Shown here: piece by piece, positions 5,084 through 42,391 of the stretch
How positions within the stretch are numbered: position 1 is the stretch's first letter
Layout: each line of letters opens with the position of its first letter
The notes under the pieces: model-generated
What the model was told of the DNA's origin: nothing
The model's database searches: none
What the model saw: the letters and a program-made list of their open reading frames with translations, nothing else
Program-made: the position numbers and the translations under genes
NCBI GenBank assembly: GCA_000151295.1
Contig: GG745354.1
Span: 1-64,000, forward strand
Source of the DNA: Allomyces macrogynus ATCC 38327
Taxonomy: Eukaryota; Blastocladiomycota; Blastocladiomycetes; Blastocladiales; Blastocladiaceae
Reading direction: 5' to 3'
Length of the DNA: 64,000 nucleotides

Positions 5084-7330
5084 ACCGGAGGATTGGGTCG
5101 GGGGAGTGCGGAATGGATTTTGATGGGTTACAGGAATCGACAATCGCACCCACTTCGCCTTTGCACCATGGCTGGGCGCTCTGGTAATCTTCCTGATGCA
5201 ATGCCACAGTATTTCGAAAGTTGCACACAGGCCGAGAAAAACGCATGTTAGCGTTCCAATGGCCCATTCCTCCCACAACCAACACCTCCACCATACTCAA
5301 AATTTCGCAAGGCTTCGTGACTTCGCTGCCTCAAACGAGCATGGATGCCCGCCTTGGCATCCAGTCCAACGCAAACGTCATATTTGCTGGCGATTAGAGT
5401 GGTTGCGCACCTGTCAGATCTGACGATAGTCTGTCATGTTTGATGGACCTGCACATGGGTCACATTGAGCTTGGCCTCACGCGTTTTTGCATGTCGAGAA
5501 TGACTGATCCTCTCACCACACTCGCGGTATCACAGCCGATCGAGCAGTCAGGAAGACTGCAACACTGACTTGGCACAGGGCTGCATGTGGGGTCAAGTCC
5601 AGACCCAGGTGGTAGAGAGAATGGCAAGAGAACATAAGTGGGATGGCAGGTTGGGCACAAAGACTGAGCGACAGAGAGAAAAGCAGAGCCGCCAAAACAA
5701 GAAGGTCATGGGCAAGCATTGCTTAAGTAGGCAACCAGCATGAGGGTATAATTTCGCCAACAGGCGATTCTGGAGCAAGCCAAGGCGCGCCTTGCCTGGT
5801 GGCGGGTGCAAGAGTCCTGGCAGGATAGCAGCAGCATATGCAAGTGGCCATGCGTGTGTCAGTGTCAGAAGTGCACGCGTGTACAGAGGCGCTGCCAGCA
5901 GGCCATACTGCCCACACAGCATGTTGCTCCCCCTGCAGCAAGCCATTTCAAAGCAACTAGCCAGTGTGTCAATGGTTGATGTGCCCAAGTCGCACCATGT
6001 TGTAATGAGTGTATTGAGCATGCTGTGCATCGTGTTATACAGCACATTGGGCATGCTGCTGGCACTGTGGTCCCACAAGTTGCATGCCACCAGCATCAAG
6101 GTGCTGCATATTGCAATACTTGGCCATCACATCTGCCATATCCAGCATGGCCTTGACCATGAGCAAGGTCAAAGACTTGGCCAAAATGAGAGTGCAGTCA
6201 GGCACACAGTTGGGCATGTGGTTAGGCATGGTAGGGCAGTGGTGCAAACAGTGTGCAACTTAGTGCTTGGGCACAATTTGCATGAGTGCAAGGCAGCACT
6301 GCAGATGGTCACCCTGCTTGCCCACCACTGCAGCCATGGTCTGCTTATCCTTGGCTGTACTGGTTGAGCTTGGCACAGGGTTCACAGCCATCAACAGTTG
6401 ATGTCCTGCAGGATGCCAGCCCATTGACACTGTGGGCACAGCAACTGACACACCAGCCTCATAATCCAAAGGTCAGGAGTAAGAGCTTCCCTGGCATTGT
6501 TGTGGAACTGCAATAAGAGCATGATCAACACCACAAGCTGGTGCATCATGTCAAACACATTGTGCAAGCATCATCAACACTGTGGGTGTCATGCTGATGG
6601 ACAGTGGTGAAGGCAGCAGTGCTGATCACCTGTGCACACAGCCACCCTGCTTGCATTTGGACTTGGCCATTCCTGCTCATTGTGCTCATTGTTCCTCACC
6701 TCTCATCTGCCACTGTCAACAACACATTCCTCTGCTGCCCAAAATGGTCCCCACCTTTAGTTGCCAGCACCCACATTGTCAGTCTGCAACACACTGATAC
6801 ATGAGCCCCTGTGTTACCAGCATCTAACACCAACAAGACTTGAACTTCATCAGCGGATATGTGGGGTCTTGCATGACTACAGGCAGGAGGACCCAAGGGA
6901 CCATGTTGGAAATGCTCATGAGTTGGTCACTGGCTGCAGCAGAACCTGCAGCCACAGCAGCCACACACAAGATGGGGAAGATGTGAGAAAACTTGGCATT
7001 GGTCTTGTGTGGTCAGTTCCATGTATTCATTGGTCATGCACACAGTTGGTGTGCTTGGACAAAGAGTGAGACATGAACATTGGGCCACTTGCTTGCTGTG
7101 CAAGTCAGTGCACAGTGAAGACAGTTCAGTTGGTGCACAGTGGACAAGCAGTTTGGCCTCATTTGCTGGCTTTATGATACATGAGCAACACAACACACAA
7201 CGTGATGTTTTCACTTTCCACTCACTGCTGGCAAATGCCAATTCAGGTGGCTAAATGGTTGTCATGCACATTGGGAGTGGATGAGTGATGTTGTCACCAC
7301 CACAGTCACCTTGCCTGCCCTAGCACCATC
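5084..7330. other. Non-coding, strongly CpG-depleted DNA
   Basis: From about 5.4 kb the sequence loses most CpG and becomes rich in TpG and CpA (tgca, gcatg and tgtg words), unlike the flanking genes. I found no convincing coding frame and no similarity to the copia family described below. It is probably old, decayed repetitive DNA of unknown type. Confidence 0.5.
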
Positions 7331-33960: not shown

Positions 33961-35594
33961 CTTCAACCTGCACCATGACTGTCACCATGACCTCGTCTGT
34001 TATGGTCAAGACGCCGATCTCTGGCCAACCAGTGACGATTGAGATGCGGAAGGCCGAAATCTCGAGCGGGCTGACGCTTGCCAACTGTTTTCTAAGCTTT
34101 TTGACTGCCAACAGGCTTGAAGACCTGTTCCCAACAGGTTTTGGTTGACGCTGATTTCTAGGTCGTGTCACTGCAACAGCAAGAGGAAATGACGGACGCG
34201 CAATTCAAGAAACTCATTGAGCTCGACTCGGACGTCAAGTTTGTTGCTGACGCAATCTATTGGAACAGTCCTGTGGGTGCCGAACACAAGAAGTGCATGG
34301 CCCACAACAGCTACAAGGCCAAGTTGTGCATCCGGAGCATCATCAAGGTCGTTTTGCCGTCTGCTGTTGCGTCTGAACTCCTGCTGGTCTTCTCGGACGC
34401 CACCTGTGTCGCTGATGCGTGGGTGCTGCTGCGTGCTTGTTTTGACAAGGGTTCTGCGCAAGCTCATCTTGCCAATGTCAAGAGGCTGTTCACGAAGCCC
34501 ATGTCGGGCTCTGGTGCTGTGGCGGTTCATGAGCACATTGCAGATTTGCAACGCCATTTTGACGTGATTTGGCGCCATGAACATGTCAAGTTGTCCTCGC
34601 ACCTGCGCACCGACTTTGCCAACTCGTTCTTGGTCCTTGCACTGCTCTCCTCACTGCTGCCCGAGTATTCGCCAACGGTGCTCTCCTTGGGCGAGCGCTA
34701 TGAGGAAATGGCGATCGTCGAATTACAGACAATTCTCGAGGGGGCTGCCGACCAGCTGGAACGCAGCTCAGGGACTGAGATGCAGGCGCTTGTTGTGACG
34801 AAGCGCAAGGACACAAACGCCTGTCACAACTGTGGCAAGATTGGTCATTATGTGCGCTTCTGCCTGAACCGGGACCACCAGTGCAAGAAAGGCGCTGGAA
34901 CCGCGAACTGGCGCAAAAAGAAGGGCGCAAATGTTGTGGCCAAGGACGGCGACGAACATGCAATGGTGCATTTGTCGGTGGACGAGTATGAGCGTTTGAT
35001 GGCGTCTGCCCGTGGTGCAGACGCCGCTGGTGTTGTTTTTGGTGCTGCTGAATTTGACGGATTTGCGCACTACCCGATTGTCGCCCTCTGCCCCGAAATC
35101 GTGAGACTTGAACGTCAAAGCCATCAGGGCATGGCGACGCCGCCCGGCACGTACCCGCCCATCATTCATGTCGATGCATCGAAGTATAAAGTACCGGATC
35201 CTCACCATCATCGTGCGCGCGCGCTGATGCCGTTGTCGGCGTGCGCACGTCTTGCACAGAGCCCGAAAGTCGACTCGGCCGCTGGCGCGCACTTTTGCGG
35301 CGACAAGTCGCTGTTTGCTACGCTCAACGACATGCGGCCTGGCGAAGGGTTCCTCGTCTCACTGGGTGACCACCGCGTGTGCCGTCCGATTGGCAAGGGC
35401 ACGATGCGCATCCGCACGCCTTCGGGCAACATTGTTCACCTCGACCCAGTCTGGTACATTCCCGGCTTCAAGACGCTTGTCTCAGTCTCTGAGCTGTACG
35501 ATCGGACTGCTGTGCGAGTCATCTTCGGGGATCAAGACGTCCAGTTCGTGCATTGCGAGACAGGAGATCTGCTCGCCAAGGGCGTGTGGCATCG

Positions 35595-35781
35595 TTTCAC
35601 AAGGTTGAGCGGGAGAAGGAATGCATTTGGTGTGTGCACTCTGCACTTCAGCGGTGGTGGCAACCATAACCTAGGTTGCCACCATCATTTACACAAGAAT
35701 CCAACTCGAACAGCTCCAACAAGGAAACAATGAGGGAAGACAAAAAACAAGAAACACAAATGCGAGACGAACACTTCGACA
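35595..35781 (-). mobile_element. Solo LTR of the copia family inside E3
   Basis: 187 bp in reverse orientation, splitting the pol reading GVWHGDTW. Plus-strand flanks are GCATC(G) on the left and GCATG on the right. Ancestral sequence in E1 is gtgtggcatggggat, consistent with an imperfect 5-bp target duplication around GCATG. It is the product of a full insertion followed by LTR-LTR recombination. Confidence 0.88.
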
Positions 35782-37187
35782 GCATGGGGATATGTGGATC
35801 GTCCCAGGCGTGTGTGAGAAGGGACCAACCAAGGACGCGTGGGTGCTCGACGTTTGGGGTAAGCGACCTGTTGGTGCGCATGTCGCCGATGCGGTCAAGA
35901 AGGTGTCGCTCGCCGAGCTGTGGCACGCGCGACTCTTTCACGTTGGTCATGATCGTGTTTCGGCCGTGTGTACGCTCGAGCATGGCGTCAAGGACGACGT
36001 TGGTGTGGCTAAGCCGCTACACGAGTGTATGACGTGTCTTGTGGCCAACACGCGCAGCCAGCTGCATCCGCTGCGCCATTTCTGTGCGAATCGACTATAT
36101 GGCGTCCTCCACACTGATTTGGTGTCAATGAAGACAGTTGGCATGGGGGGTGTCAACTACTTTGCGACAGTCACAGACAAATACTCATGCTGGTGCTTCG
36201 TGCTGCTTCTCCGGCACAAGGACGACTTTGGACCGCAGTTTCTCGATTTGCTGAAGCACGCCAAGTCGTTCTTTGGCATGTCTGCGGGCCGGCTGCACAG
36301 CAACCATGGTGGTGAGTTCATTGGCAACAAACAGTTTACGCTCAATTCTGCTCTCACATCGCATGCACTTGTCGACAACGTCTCCGAACTTGCCAGAGTC
36401 AAATGGGCTTGCCGAGCGGACGCAGGGTGTGCTCAAGTCGATGGTGCGTGCGGCCATGACAGCCGCCAAGGCGCCAGATTCCCTCTGGCCAGAGTGTGTG
36501 CGCGTGGCGTGCTATGTGCGCAACCATGTGCCAAGTGACTTGCTCAGTGGTCGCTCGCCATACAAGGTTGTTTTCGGCGCGTCACCCAACATGTCGAAGT
36601 GCAAAGTGTGGGGCTCGCTTGGTGGCGCTGTTGTTCCAATGACACAGGCGCATCTGGGCGTGTCCAGATTCGCTGCAAGTGTAGCAGTGCACATGGTTGG
36701 TTATGGAGATGAGTTGCTGTGGGTCACACGCAATGGCTACCACGTGTGGGACGGACAGAAGGTGTTTGTCACGCACGACGTCAAGTTTGCCAAGTGGCTC
36801 TGTGTTGCAGAGTCGCGTGTTGTTGCTGGTGCTCCTCGCACGTTGCTGTTGGCCAAGGTCAAGGTTGGGTCGCCTGTGCAAGTTGATTTGGGGTTGCTGG
36901 ACGTGCCGGTGACTGTGGTCAATGGTGTTGGTGGCAATGAAGTTGTTGAAGAGGAGATTGGGTGTGGCGCGCAGCATGATCAAGTTCAAGTGCCTATGGT
37001 GGTTCCGGATCAACTTCCTGCGGTCAACCTGATTGCCAAGCTCCCACTGGCGGTGCCGGCGTTGGAGCACGATAGTCTGCAAGTCGGCGAGAGTCCCGGT
37101 TTGCCGCAGGTGGACCAGGGACCTCGCGGACGTGGGGGAGCCCAGTCGTCAGGCCAATGCACCAGAAGCAAGCAATGGGGGTGTTGG

Positions 37188-37252
37188 TGTTGGAATGGTG
37201 AATCCAGCACTGCTGCCTTTGATCAGGTTTTGGTGCAGTGGTTAACTCAACA
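37188..37252 (+). repeat. 5' LTR of the TRIM
   Basis: 65 bp, identical to the 3' copy at 37406-37470. Ends are the inverted pair TGTTG/CAACA. It contains no CpG. Confidence 0.93.
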
Positions 37253-37297
37253 GGTTATGAGCCCTGTGTGCGCTGAGGTCCTGGGATCGAACCCCAG
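37231..37297 (+). promoter_or_regulatory. tRNA-like internal promoter (A box, B box, T-arm)
   Basis: A-box consensus match TGGTGCAGTGG followed by tta, as in tRNA D-loops. About 54 bases later comes the B-box match GATCGAACC within the stem-loop CTGGG-ATCGAAC-CCCAG. An ACAGG/CCTGT hairpin around ttatgagc lies between them. No acceptor stem pairs across the whole, so it is tRNA-derived or tRNA-like rather than a functional tRNA gene. Confidence 0.6.
37253..37266 (+). promoter_or_regulatory. Primer-binding site of the TRIM
   Basis: GGTTATGAGCCCTG, complementary to the initiator tRNA-Met anticodon arm, with zero spacing from the LTR end. Confidence 0.8.
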
Positions 37298-37405
37298 TTG
37301 CAATGGTTGACATTTGGAGCCCAAAAGAGGGGGAAAAAGGAATCCTCGCCCCTCCAGCTGACCCCAGGTAACTGAAGTTGCAGCAGATACTGGCTTCAGG
37401 GGGAG

Positions 37406-37470
37406 TGTTGGAATGGTGAATCCAGCACTGCTGCCTTTGATCAGGTTTTGGTGCAGTGGTTAACTCAACA
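37406..37470 (+). repeat. 3' LTR of the TRIM
   Basis: 65 bp identical to the 5' LTR, preceded by polypurine GGGGGAG at 37399-37405. Confidence 0.93.
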
Positions 37471-39468
37471 GTTGGTGCTCTTGGACCTGACGCTCAAGTG
37501 CCCATCGCGCAGCAATCACGCCGTTTGCACGGCCTACAGCCTGAGGTCGCTCACCGTTTTGATCCTGACGCCATTGCCCGCGTCCGCAGTATGCCCGACG
37601 TGGGGGAGGTGGATCCTGAACCTAAAAGGGGCATCGAATGTCCTGCTGACGCAGTTGAGAAAGTGCGCGTGTTGCAGTTGAAAACTGATTGCACTGACGC
37701 TTCGGCCCCTCTTGTTCGTTCCCTAGCTGGCCCTGGCGTTGACTCAGGCTCGCCCCTGTCTGGAATTGTCGATCTCGATTTGCCGACATTGTTTCTACGT
37801 GCGCACCCGGACTCGGATCTCAGCAAGTCTGTTGAGTTGGCAAGTGCGGTGCTCACATGCGTTGCCGCAGCTCAAGTTGGCGCCCAGGGTGCAGTTTGGG
37901 AACCCAAGACAGTCGAGGAAGCACTAGCACACCTGGACTGGCGCGCACTGACATTTGACAAGTACAACTCGCTTGTCGAGAATGGGACATGGGTGCCCGT
38001 CAACCACCGCCCAGGTGACAAGGTGATGCGCTCCGGTTGGATCTTCAAGTGGAAACTCGGGGCAGACGGAAAGCCCGTGCGCGCCAAGTCGCGACTTGTT
38101 GCCAAGGGATACAGGGCCATTCCAGGCATGCATTACACAGACACATTTGCACCTGTTGCGTCATTTGACACGCTGCATCTGATCCTGTTGCTCGCCGCGT
38201 ATCTCAAGGTCCGGCCGCTGCAGCTCGACATCAAGATGGCCTTCCTGTATGGTTACATCAAGGAGCATGTGCTCAGGGAGCAGCCACCAGGCTTCATCAA
38301 CAAGAAGAACTCAGACAAGGTCTGCATGCTCGTCAAGGCACTGTATGGCACCAAGCAGGCCCCACACCTGTGGTTCTGCCATTTGGCCAATTACCTGATT
38401 TCGCTCGGATTTGCGGAGTCCAAGTACGACAAGTGCCTGTTCATGCACAAGACAGGCAAGGGCATGATCTTCATTGGAGTTTATGTTGACGACTTGCCGA
38501 TTGTCACGTCAACCAAGGAACTGCGCAAGTGGATTGTTGACAAGTTGAAGTCCAAGTTCAAGGTGCATGACTTGGGCAATGTGGCATGGTTGCTTGGGTG
38601 CAAGATTACGTACAGCGACGATGGGTTGATTTACCTTGACCTGAGCCAGTATGTCAAGTCAATGGGCAAACGGTTCCAGATCCCTGAAAAGATGCGGCTG
38701 GTGATCCCGACGCGACCAAACAACTTCAAGGAGCTGCTCGAGTTGCCCAAGATCATTGATCCAGTCATGAAGACTGAGTACCTTGCCATTGTCAGGTCCC
38801 TGCTCTTTGCGGTGACCAAAATGCGGCTGGACATTGCTGTTGCAACTGCAATTCTTGGCTGTTTCATGCATGTACCTGGTATGCTACATCTCAAGGCTGC
38901 AAAGCAGCTCGTTGGGTACCTGTTGGGCACGTCGAACCTCAGCATCAAGTTTTTGGGCAAGGATATGAAACTTGACGCATTTGCTGATGCCAATTGGGCC
39001 AAGGATCGTGGCGACTACAAGTTGACATTGGGTTTTGTGGTATGGGTTGACAGTAGCCCTGTTGCCTGGCACTTGAAGAAGCAGATGCTTGTGGCAAAGT
39101 CGACCATGGCCGCTGAGTACATGTTGGCAAGCTTAGTGGGCAACACGATCCTCACGATGTGCACACTGCTGGAAGAGCTTGGGTACAAACAGGATGGACT
39201 GACGCTGCTCATGGAAGATTATGAGTCAGCAGAGTGTATAGCCAAGGATGTGCTGCTCTCGTCAAAACATGTTGAGATCCACACCCACTGGTTGCAGGAC
39301 CAAGTTGCCAAGAAGACGATTGACCTGCAGCACATGGACATGGAGAACCAGATTGCCGACATTTTGACCAAGCCACTTGCTGCTCCTGCATTCCACAAGC
39401 TTTGTGACATGATTGGAGTTGTGGAAGTGATTGCTCCACGTGCATAGGGAATGCTCACCATGGGGGAG

Positions 39469-40906: not shown

Positions 40907-42391
40907 ATGTCCAGCATCCTCGCCCAAACCGCGACCCGCCGTGCCCCGCATGCCGTTGCCCAAGCGACGCGCCGTACTGCCGCTGCTGCACGCTACCATG
41001 CTTCCACGAGCGCGCGTGCCTCGCGCTCCAAGCTCGCCGCGTCCGGCGCTGCGGGCGCTGCCGCCGTGGCCGGTGCTCTCTGGTGGTGGTCCACTTCGAC
41101 CTCGTCGCTCGTCGAGAATCTGGTGCGGTTTGGAGCCATGTTGAACGCGTCGCGATTCGACGAATGGTGCCACTGATCACCCATCTTGACGACGCGTCGC
41201 CAGATCCCCGCCGCCGAGTGCAAGGCCGGACCGATCAAGGTCGCCACCGACGCCGTCAACCTGCGCCCGCTCGGCCTCGATTTTGCGCACCGCGGCAACA
41301 CCACCTTCAAGAGCCCCGTAATCATGGACACGAGCAAGCCCATGGGCGAGCGCATGGCCGCCTATGTCAAGGAACTGCAAAACGAGATTGTCGGCGCGCT
41401 CGAGGAGCTCGAGCAGGCCGAGGCACCGAGCTTCAATGGCGCAAAGTTTGAGCGCGACGCATGGACCCGCACCGACGGCAACGGCGGCGGCATGTCGTGC
41501 GTGCTCTCCGGTGGTCGCGTCTTTGAAAAGGCCGGCGTCATGGTCACGGTCATGGAGAGTAAAATGTCGCCCGCAGGAGTCGCGCAGATGCGCGCTCGTG
41601 GCCGCGACTTCGGCGATATCCCCAAAGACGCGCACGTTCCCTTCTTTGCGGCGGGTATCTCGATTGTCATCCACCCAAACAACCCGCACGCGCCGACGGC
41701 GCACATGAACTACCGCTACTTTGAAGTGCGCGACCCGAAGACGAACAAGCCCGTGGCCTGGTGGTTTGGCGGCGGTGCCGACTTGACGCCGACGTTCCTC
41801 GATGCGAACGACGCCGCGCACTTCCATGCGCAGCTCAAGGCCCCTTGCGACCGGTCGCTCGGCAAGCACGCCTACCCGGCGCTCAAGGAATGGTGCGACG
41901 AGTACTTTTACCTGCCGCACCGCAAGGAGACGCGCGGCGTGGGCGGCATCTTCTTTGACGATCTCGACACGGACTCGCCGCACGCGCCCAAGGGCGCAAC
42001 CAAGGAACAGCTGTTTGCGTTTGTCCGCGACGCCGGTCGTGCGTTTGTGCCCGCCTACGCGCCGACCGTCGCGAGGCACATGCGCCAGCCCTACACGGCC
42101 GCCGAAAAGCGGTGGCAGCAACTGCGTCGTGGTCGCTACGTCGAGTTCAACCTGGTGCTCGACCGCGGGACCAAGTTTGGGCTCATGACGCCCAACGCAC
42201 GCATCGAGTCGATTCTCGTGTCGCTGCCAGAGACGGCGCGGTGGGAGTACTGCCACACGCCCGTGGCCGGGTCGCCCGAGGCGCGCATTCTCGACGTGCT
42301 CAAGACGCCGCGTGATTGGCTGAACGTGGGCATTGGTGCCGCCGTGATTCCCGACGACTTGTTGGACGCCAACCTCGCAGTCAAGGCATAA
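40907..42391 (+). CDS. HEM13: Coproporphyrinogen III oxidase (oxygen-dependent)
   Basis: Two exons (40907-41122, 41204-42391) encode about 467 residues. The enzyme converts coproporphyrinogen III to protoporphyrinogen IX by two O2-dependent decarboxylations in haem synthesis. Family blocks are clear: FERDAWTRTDGNGGGMSCVL, VIHPNNPHAPTAHMNYRYFE, WWFGGGADLTPTFL, KEWCDEYFYLPHRKETRGVG, GGIFFDDLD and LRRGRYVEFNLVLDRGTKFG. Residues 1-70 are rich in Ala, Arg and Ser, lack acids at first (TATRRAPHAVAQATRRT) and include a short hydrophobic stretch near residue 50. That resembles a bipartite mitochondrial intermembrane-space presequence, like animal CPOX and unlike the cytosolic yeast enzyme. The 81-bp intron separates this presequence from the catalytic domain. 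Confidence 0.95.

What the first reader, a model, noticed from the sequence alone, without database searches (positions are those of the whole stretch)
37188..37470. Intact TRIM with a tRNA-like Pol III promoter spanning its LTR/PBS junction
Seen: identical 65-bp LTRs with TGTTG/CAACA ends, perfect GTTGG target duplication, primer site and polypurine tract identical to those of the resident copia family, no coding capacity. Also seen: a TGGTGCAGTGG A-box match at the end of the LTR and a GATCGAACC B-box match in a T-arm-like hairpin 54 bases later. Known: Cassandra TRIMs of plants carry 5S-type Pol III boxes in their LTRs. A fungal TRIM with tRNA-type boxes that cross from LTR into interior is not something I know of. 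Inference: it could be transcribed by Pol III, or be a fusion of a SINE-like tRNA head with an LTR element.
Basis: partly seen in the sequence, partly recalled or inferred. Interest (0 to 1): 0.82.

Follow-up and report, generated by a model that had tools for sequence, protein, structure and literature searches.

The report
Tiny retrotransposon with split tRNA-type promoter
A 283-base mobile element in the water mould Allomyces carries the two halves of a tRNA-gene-like promoter on either side of its reverse-transcription priming site, a new layout of a recently described kind of miniature retrotransposon.

Summary
37188-37470 is an intact TRIM (miniature non-coding LTR retrotransposon): identical 65-bp LTRs, TSD GTTGG, PBS complementary to the tRNA-iMet anticodon region, PPT GGGGGAG. 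It is nested in a copia element; related copia copies show the uninterrupted site. Host: Allomyces macrogynus. The genome search lists 14 copies with interior and 21 LTR-only matches. The A box (in the LTR) is exact in 11 of 12 copies that keep a 5' LTR. The B box (in the interior) is intact in the 5 copies with identical LTRs, hit by C-to-T in 5 of 14, and present in another sequence in the divergent copy C56. The box score lies in the range of the genome's tRNA genes; 0 of 1500 shuffles and 1 of 1320 genomic chunks reach it. No cloverleaf, no Rfam tRNA match: a promoter-like stretch, not a tRNA. Pol III TRIMs with tRNA boxes are published (Helenus/TRIMp3, Kojima 2024), including fungal ones with the same kind of PBS and 5-bp TSD. 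What differs: Helenus has the tRNA-like part in the LTR; here the PBS sits between A and B boxes, so only full-length elements carry the complete promoter. New variant; transcription is untested.

The parts
37183..37187 (.). left target-site duplication GTTGG
   Evidence: uninterrupted site in related copia copies
37188..37252 (+). 5' LTR, 65 bp, TGTTG...CAACA
37211..37231 (+). predicted R region: expected Pol III start (about 18-20 bp before the A box) to the TTTT run at 37228-37231
   Evidence: inference from tRNA-gene geometry (recalled); TTTT position
37231..37241 (+). A box TGGTGCAGTGG at the end of the LTR
   Evidence: exact in 11 of 12 copies that keep a 5' LTR
37253..37405 (+). non-coding interior, 153 bp; past the PBS no match to the three copia elements of the window
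37253..37266 (+). primer-binding site GGTTATGAGCCCTG, reverse complement of the tRNA-iMet anticodon-arm region
37281..37297 (+). T-arm-like segment CTGGG-ATCGAAC-CCCAG
   Evidence: two of five stem pairs changed on both sides between subfamilies
37284..37294 (+). B box GGATCGAACCC in the interior, 31 bases past the LTR end
37399..37405 (+). polypurine tract GGGGGAG
37406..37470 (+). 3' LTR, identical to the 5' LTR; its TTTT at 37446-37449 is a possible Pol III terminator
37471..37475 (.). right target-site duplication GTTGG
34162..39444 (+). frames of the copia element that the TRIM interrupts (Pol_BBD; integrase core and gag_pre-integrase below their cut-offs; RVT_2)
   Evidence: related copies without the insert

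Best explanation
The element is a TRIM of Allomyces macrogynus moved in trans by copia-type enzymes that prime with a 5' part of tRNA-iMet (shown: PBS, PPT, TSDs, copies, empty site; inferred: the enzyme source). Its RNA is most likely made by RNA polymerase III from an internal tRNA-type promoter whose A box is the end of the LTR (U5) and whose B box lies in the interior beyond the PBS (boxes shown, transcription inferred). By tRNA-gene geometry, transcription would start about 18-20 bp before the A box in the 5' LTR, pass through U5, PBS, B box and PPT, and could stop at the TTTT of the 3' LTR. That would give an R-U5-PBS...PPT-U3-R RNA with about 20 nt of terminal redundancy, which reverse transcription needs. 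Because the B box is outside the LTR, neither solo LTRs nor the 3' LTR hold a complete promoter.
For: 14 interior copies and 21 LTR-only matches. Perfect 5-bp TSDs in 8 of 11 distinct two-LTR insertions and in 12 of 18 LTR-only insertions tabulated, 4 more with one mismatch. Uninterrupted site in related copia copies. Of 66 loci cut around the 89 places with the PBS 13-mer, the central match is a copia leader in 53 (one by eye), a tRNA-iMet gene in 7, this TRIM in 4 and another element in 2. Box score 24.0 against 23.9-29.7 for 28 tRNAs; 0 of 1500 shuffles, 1 of 1320 chunks; 56 copia leader stretches (some loci overlap) score at most 0.9. Divergent copy C56 differs at 5 of 11 B-box bases yet scores 14.8 (window copy 14.3); random 5-base change keeps a score of 14.0 or more in 0.04% of 20,000 simulations. 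The T-stem shows two pairs changed on both sides. All 5 copies with identical LTRs have both boxes intact. A box of the 5' LTR: 0 variant letters in 10 subfamily-1 copies, against 4.9% in LTR positions 1-43. TTTT occurs in both LTRs and nowhere else in 11 of the 12 copies with two LTRs. The LTR has no TATA box (read).
Against: No transcript or Pol III occupancy data. B box broken in 5 of 14 copies, and C68's version scores only 8.2; in subfamily 1 the B box varies more (6.4%) than most of the interior, so nothing shows selection on it within that subfamily. The A box is not exact in the 3' LTRs of C14y, C28, C34 and C68 nor in 4 of 18 tabulated solo LTRs (C61a, C59, C49s, L095). No tRNA covariance match, no cloverleaf. 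The box test is post hoc; T-stem covariation rests on two old copies of one branch, and the count of pairs changed on both sides is reached by 110 of 500 shuffles. The TTTT also lies just before the A box in the 5' LTR, and four T's may be a weak fungal terminator (recalled); of 7 iMet genes read, 4 have a run of four or more T's within 45 bases and 3 have none. No autonomous partner sharing LTR or interior was found.
Confidence: 0.66

Rival explanations
1. An ordinary copia-mobilised TRIM transcribed by Pol II or by read-through from neighbouring genes or elements; the A and B boxes are decayed ancestry or coincidence with no present role.
For: No expression data; B box lost in 5 of 14 copies; no tRNA fold; the grass SMART element of similar size was reported with a TATA motif in its LTR (PMC3281118, passages).
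Against: No TATA in this 65-bp LTR; box score 24.0 not reached in 1500 shuffles; the five copies with identical LTRs all keep both boxes; a strong B box of different sequence in C56.
Confidence: 0.24
2. Origin, not exclusive with the best explanation: a Helenus relative in which a tRNA or SINE head was once wholly inside the LTR, and the LTR boundary later moved so that the B box ended up in the interior.
For: Most fungal Helenus share an anticodon-region PBS, 5-bp TSD and likely copia dependence (PMC10886601); tRNA-like boxes at tRNA spacing.
Against: None of the 14 copies has both boxes inside the LTR; no SINE with these boxes found (matches only partly read); no single tRNA gives a clear match.
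Confidence: 0.2
3. The tRNA likeness is mimicry of tRNA-iMet that helps the primer anneal or be packaged (as proposed near the PBS of HIV-1, recalled), not a promoter.
For: The PBS lies where the anticodon arm would be and is its reverse complement. The T part matches one iMet gene at 19 of 27 bases, the best of 29 tRNA sequences compared (17-19 for three iMet genes; next best 18, tRNA-Ala).
Against: The stretch does not fold into a cloverleaf and does not match the tRNA model; the D part matches iMet at only 11 of 21 (up to 14 for other tRNAs, 11 for reverse-complement controls).
Confidence: 0.07

Closest known systems
Helenus (tRNA-type TRIM; Kojima 2024, PMC10886601)
   Same: Non-coding LTR element, tRNA-type A and B boxes, PBS to the tRNA-iMet anticodon region (dominant in fungal Helenus), PPT, 5-bp TSD and inferred copia dependence in fungi, solo LTRs with TSDs
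   Different: Helenus is defined by the tRNA-derived sequence inside the LTR; here only the A box is in the LTR. Helenus is 311-1263 bp and its fungal hosts in Table 1 are Basidiomycota; this is 283 bp in Blastocladiomycota
Cassandra (5S-type TRIM of plants)
   Same: Pol III promoter in a TRIM; RNA reported to start and end within the LTRs, giving an 18-bp repeat (as told in the introduction of PMC10886601), close to the about 20 nt predicted here
   Different: 5S-type promoter wholly in the LTR; no Rfam 5S match here
SMART / FRetro129 of grasses (PMC3281118, passages)
   Same: Very small LTR element: 292 bp, 85-bp LTR, 5-bp TSD, TGT...ACA ends, solo LTRs
   Different: Plant element with a TATA motif in the LTR; its authors called it the smallest then known, and this one is 9 bp shorter
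tRNA-derived SINE
   Same: A/B-box internal promoter
   Different: LTRs, PBS, PPT and 5-bp TSDs point to reverse transcription by the LTR route

Membership tests
TRIM | two LTRs, PBS and PPT, no coding capacity, under 1000 bp | tested here: met
   interior of 153 bp
TRIM | multiple dispersed copies with target-site duplications | tested here: met
Helenus | tRNA-derived sequence (A and B boxes) inside the LTR | tested here: not met
   A box at LTR 44-54, B box at element 97-107, past the LTR end at 65
Helenus | 5-bp TSD in fungi | tested here: met
Helenus | PBS to the anticodon region of a tRNA, shared with copia elements (most fungal families) | tested here: met
[quoted passage not shown]
   window copy TGGTG is two bases off TRGCY, TGG fits YGG, GGATC is one base off GGTTC; C56 has AGTTC
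TRIMp3 | TRIM carrying a Pol III promoter | tested here: inconclusive
   promoter-like boxes at tRNA-gene strength; activity not tested
TRIMp3 | transcribed by RNA polymerase III | not testable with these tools
   no expression data
Cassandra | 5S rRNA-like sequence in the LTR | tested here: not met
   no 5S family among the six matches up to E 5
SINE | mobilised by a non-LTR retrotransposon (no LTR, PBS or PPT) | tested here: not met
SMART (FRetro129 group) | sequence homology to FRetro129 | not tested
   its sequence was not fetched
tRNA gene | tRNA covariance match or cloverleaf | tested here: not met
   four further copy loci

The most novel reading that the evidence does not exclude
A working Pol III promoter split by the LTR boundary, with the primer-binding site built into the A-to-B spacer where a tRNA keeps its anticodon arm. 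The promoter exists only in complete elements, so that solo LTRs are automatically silent, and the whole retroelement shrinks to 283 bp, 9 bp below the SMART element called the smallest in 2012.
Probability: 0.55. Interest if true: 0.66.

Novelty: new variant of a known kind. Interest (0 to 1): 0.52.

Why it matters
It would extend Pol III-type TRIMs, whose fungal hosts in the one paper found are all Basidiomycota, to an early-diverging fungal phylum. It also shows a layout that a screen of LTRs for tRNA likeness, as used to find Helenus, would probably miss. The split layout makes a clean prediction: full-length copies make short Pol III RNAs and solo LTRs of the same sequence do not. If true, it explains how so small an LTR element can carry both a promoter and its replication signals.

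Tried and rejected
Autonomous partner: the three LTR matches 3901 bp apart on C59 looked like one, but are a solo LTR (TSD GAAAT) inside a tandemly repeated block of host sequence. The other element with this PBS boundary (L129, L131; L135 is 5.9 kb around L131) has long open frames, not searched for domains, and no match to the TRIM's LTR or interior. The TRIM interior past the PBS has no match to the three window copias up to E 10, and the LTR only chance-level ones (best E 0.38).

tRNA origin: D and T parts against 26 tRNAs gave no clear parent (best 14/21 tRNA-Gln and 18/27 tRNA-Ala; reverse-complement controls up to 11/21 and 15/27); three iMet genes, compared afterwards, give 11/21 and 17-19/27. 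The one background chunk above the TRIM score is a tRNA-like sequence at L016 about 5260-5340, found once in the genome. A 237-nt predicted transcript folds no better than shuffles (z 0.00).

Age: zero LTR differences in 65 bp bounds the age only loosely, so no date is given. Papers: Kojima 2024 (PMC10886601) was read in sections 3, 4, 10, 19 and 29 (introduction, methods, results, discussion, legends and tables), not its supplements; PMC3281118 in passages; PMC10853983 abstract and outline only; other papers in search listings only. That no Allomyces or split-box case was found rests on searches (one returned nothing; listings only) and on a term search in Kojima 2024 (0 for Allomyces, 0 for Blastocladio). 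Repbase and that paper's supplementary tables were not searched.

After the one-time check the following was mended: the count of PBS places read, the A-box consensus row, the iMet comparison (now run), the losses of the A box in 3' and solo LTRs, the C68 and T-stem caveats and the L118 note. The iMet comparison raised the mimicry rival slightly, and the added caveats lowered the main confidence from 0.68 to 0.66.

Full report
What it is. The window is part of a 54-Mb assembly in 75 contigs. The frame at 41177-42388 is 100% identical over 98% of the query to AMAG_12388 of Allomyces macrogynus ATCC 38327, so the host is that blastocladiomycete fungus. At 37188-37470 lie two identical 65-bp LTRs around a 153-bp interior, flanked by GTTGG on both sides. 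The element interrupts a copia element (Pol_BBD and RVT_2 frames, with integrase-core and gag_pre-integrase matches below their curated cut-offs, between 34162 and 39444). The joined flanks match related copia copies across the junction in L023 (alignments seen; single GTTGG) and, by the table only, in L019, L025, L021, L027, L016 and two places of the window. The two full-length alignments printed also show an 11-base gap about 60 bases to the left, which is not at the junction.

Family. The whole element finds 35 places in its own genome: 14 with interior and 21 with the LTR only (lower bounds by the tool's note). The interior alone finds the same 14, and a divergent copy as query adds no new interior copy. 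Two of the 14 (C34, C44) lack a recognisable 5' LTR; two units on C14 share a middle LTR. Of 11 distinct insertions with LTRs on both sides, 8 have perfect 5-bp duplications, the C14 pair has 4 of 5, C28 shows one only if its damaged end is shifted (by eye), and C68 shows none. The 21 LTR-only matches are 19 insertions if the three C59 copies count once. Of the 18 tabulated, 12 have perfect 5-bp duplications, 4 have one mismatch and 2 have none; the 19th, L097, was missed by the script's pattern and looked at only by eye. This is a real LTR retrotransposon family with solo LTRs. LTR pairs are identical in 5 copies, the window's among them.

How it is primed and moved. The PBS GGTTATGAGCCCTG is the reverse complement of the anticodon-arm region of the genome's tRNA-iMet genes. 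A 13-base form occurs 89 times in the genome, against 0 for the reversed control pattern. Loci were cut around 66 of these matches: the central match is a copia leader in 53 (52 by rule, L110 by eye), a tRNA-iMet gene in 7, this TRIM in 4, and another element in 2. Two window copias carry the same PPT GGGGGAG before their 3' LTR. The TRIM shares nothing else detectable with the window copias. Mobilisation by a copia that primes with part of tRNA-iMet is therefore inferred from signals, as Kojima argued for fungal Helenus (PMC10886601).

The tRNA-type boxes. A matrix built from A and B boxes of 28 tRNA sequences of this genome (26 fetched, 2 iMet typed) scores the element 24.0 bits. The same tRNAs score 23.9-29.7, but the matrix was trained on them; 2 of 28 lie below the TRIM. 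The box starts are 53 bp apart, against 43-45 in 27 of the 28 tRNAs and 53 in the tRNA-Ser. None of 1500 dinucleotide shuffles reaches the score (maximum 20.5). One of 1320 genomic chunks does, after chunks with the A-box core were dropped, and that is itself a tRNA-like sequence. Copia leaders score at most 0.9 in 56 stretches, some overlapping.

Conservation. The A box is exact in the 5' LTR of 11 of 12 copies (C68 has lost it), in 10 of 14 3' LTRs (not C14y, C28, C34, C68) and in 14 of 18 tabulated solo LTRs. The B box is GGATCGAACCC in 6 of 14 copies and GGATCGAATCC in C14y; it carries C-to-T at the CpG in 5 (C65a, C28, C30, and with further changes C44 and C14x); C56 has AGTTCAATTCC and C68 AGCTCAATCCC. 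All five copies with identical LTRs have both boxes intact; the losses are in older copies, as expected if dead copies decay at CpG. Within ten subfamily-1 copies the B box is not less variable than its surroundings (6.4% against 5.3% before and 3.2% after it), while the 5' A box does not vary. C56 differs from the window copy at 5 of 11 B-box bases but scores 14.8 against 14.3; random changes of that size keep a score of at least 14.0 in 0.04% of 20,000 simulations; C68 scores only 8.2. In the T-stem two of five pairs changed on both sides between the subfamilies: 80% of cells paired against 71.7% in shuffles (5 of 500 as high), covariation score 0.271 against 0.134 (1 of 500), but pairs changed on both sides 2 against 0.9 (110 of 500); slid controls are lower. 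This rests on two old copies of one branch, C56 being the better. I read it as a tRNA-type promoter kept through the split of the subfamilies.

What speaks against a tRNA. ARAGORN and Rfam (window copy; four other copy loci) find none. The 86-nt stretch folds no better than shuffles and not as a cloverleaf. No tRNA compared is a clear parent; the closest T part is that of an iMet gene, 19 of 27 bases, while the D part does not favour iMet. So it is promoter-like and does not encode a recognisable tRNA.

Mechanism. In tRNA genes Pol III starts about 18-20 bp before the A box (recalled). That puts the start at about LTR position 24-26, and the only TTTT runs are at or next to LTR position 41 in each LTR in 11 of the 12 copies with two LTRs. 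A transcript from the 5' LTR start to the 3' LTR TTTT would have about 20 nt of repeated ends, much as reported for Cassandra (18 bp; PMC10886601). Caveats: the same TTTT is met early in the 5' LTR, and four T's may terminate weakly (recalled); of 7 iMet genes here, 4 have at least four T's within 45 bases downstream. The 3' LTR and solo LTRs have the A box but no B box of the element downstream, so the promoter is complete only in full-length units. This layout separates it from Helenus, Ajax and Cassandra, whose promoter sequences lie in the LTR (PMC10886601).

Novelty. Kojima 2024 already proposes TRIMs with Pol III promoters (TRIMp3) and describes tRNA-type Helenus in fungi, 311-1263 bp over all hosts, with fungal hosts in Pucciniales and Agaricomycetes. 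The present element fails the defining LTR-internal placement, so it is not filed as Helenus, but works like one if the boxes function. At 283 bp it is shorter than SMART (292 bp), called the smallest when described (PMC3281118, passages); later records were not surveyed. Verdict: new variant of a known kind, well supported as anatomy, untested as function.

Noticed in passing
L026 4908-4982 and window 37183-37475: Two independent insertions of this family, in opposite orientation, lie 9 bp apart at the same place of two different copia copies, both with target GTTGG: possible local target preference.
   Followed up: partly
L028 1-10000 (C59:119000-128999): A 3.9-kb block with an open frame for a repetitive DSYDSYGYGYDKKDDYYGH protein is repeated in tandem; the three LTR matches 3901 bp apart are 94% identical to the window LTR, and the first has TSD GAAAT.
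   Followed up: partly
L009 563-1063 (C14:157062-157562): Tandem LTR-interior-LTR-interior-LTR form of the TRIM; outer duplication CCGGA/CCAGA.
   Followed up: partly
L016 about 5260-5340 (C65): Single-copy tRNA-like sequence with strong A and B boxes (26.4 bits) that ARAGORN does not call; possibly a tRNA pseudogene or organellar insert.
   Followed up: partly
L129, L131, L135 (C68, C75): Another element with PBS boundary ACA|GGTTATGAGCCCTG, long open frames and no match to the TRIM's LTR; a further family with an iMet anticodon-region PBS.
   Followed up: partly
TRIM copies C65a, C28, C30, C44, C14x: In all five the B-box damage includes C-to-T at its CpG, which would fit methylation-linked decay of old copies in this fungus.
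   Followed up: no
L118 (C58:394075-394351): A second exact match to the anticodon-region 13-mer lies just beyond the 3' end of a tRNA-iMet gene, in the same orientation, like a partial duplicate of its anticodon arm.
   Followed up: no
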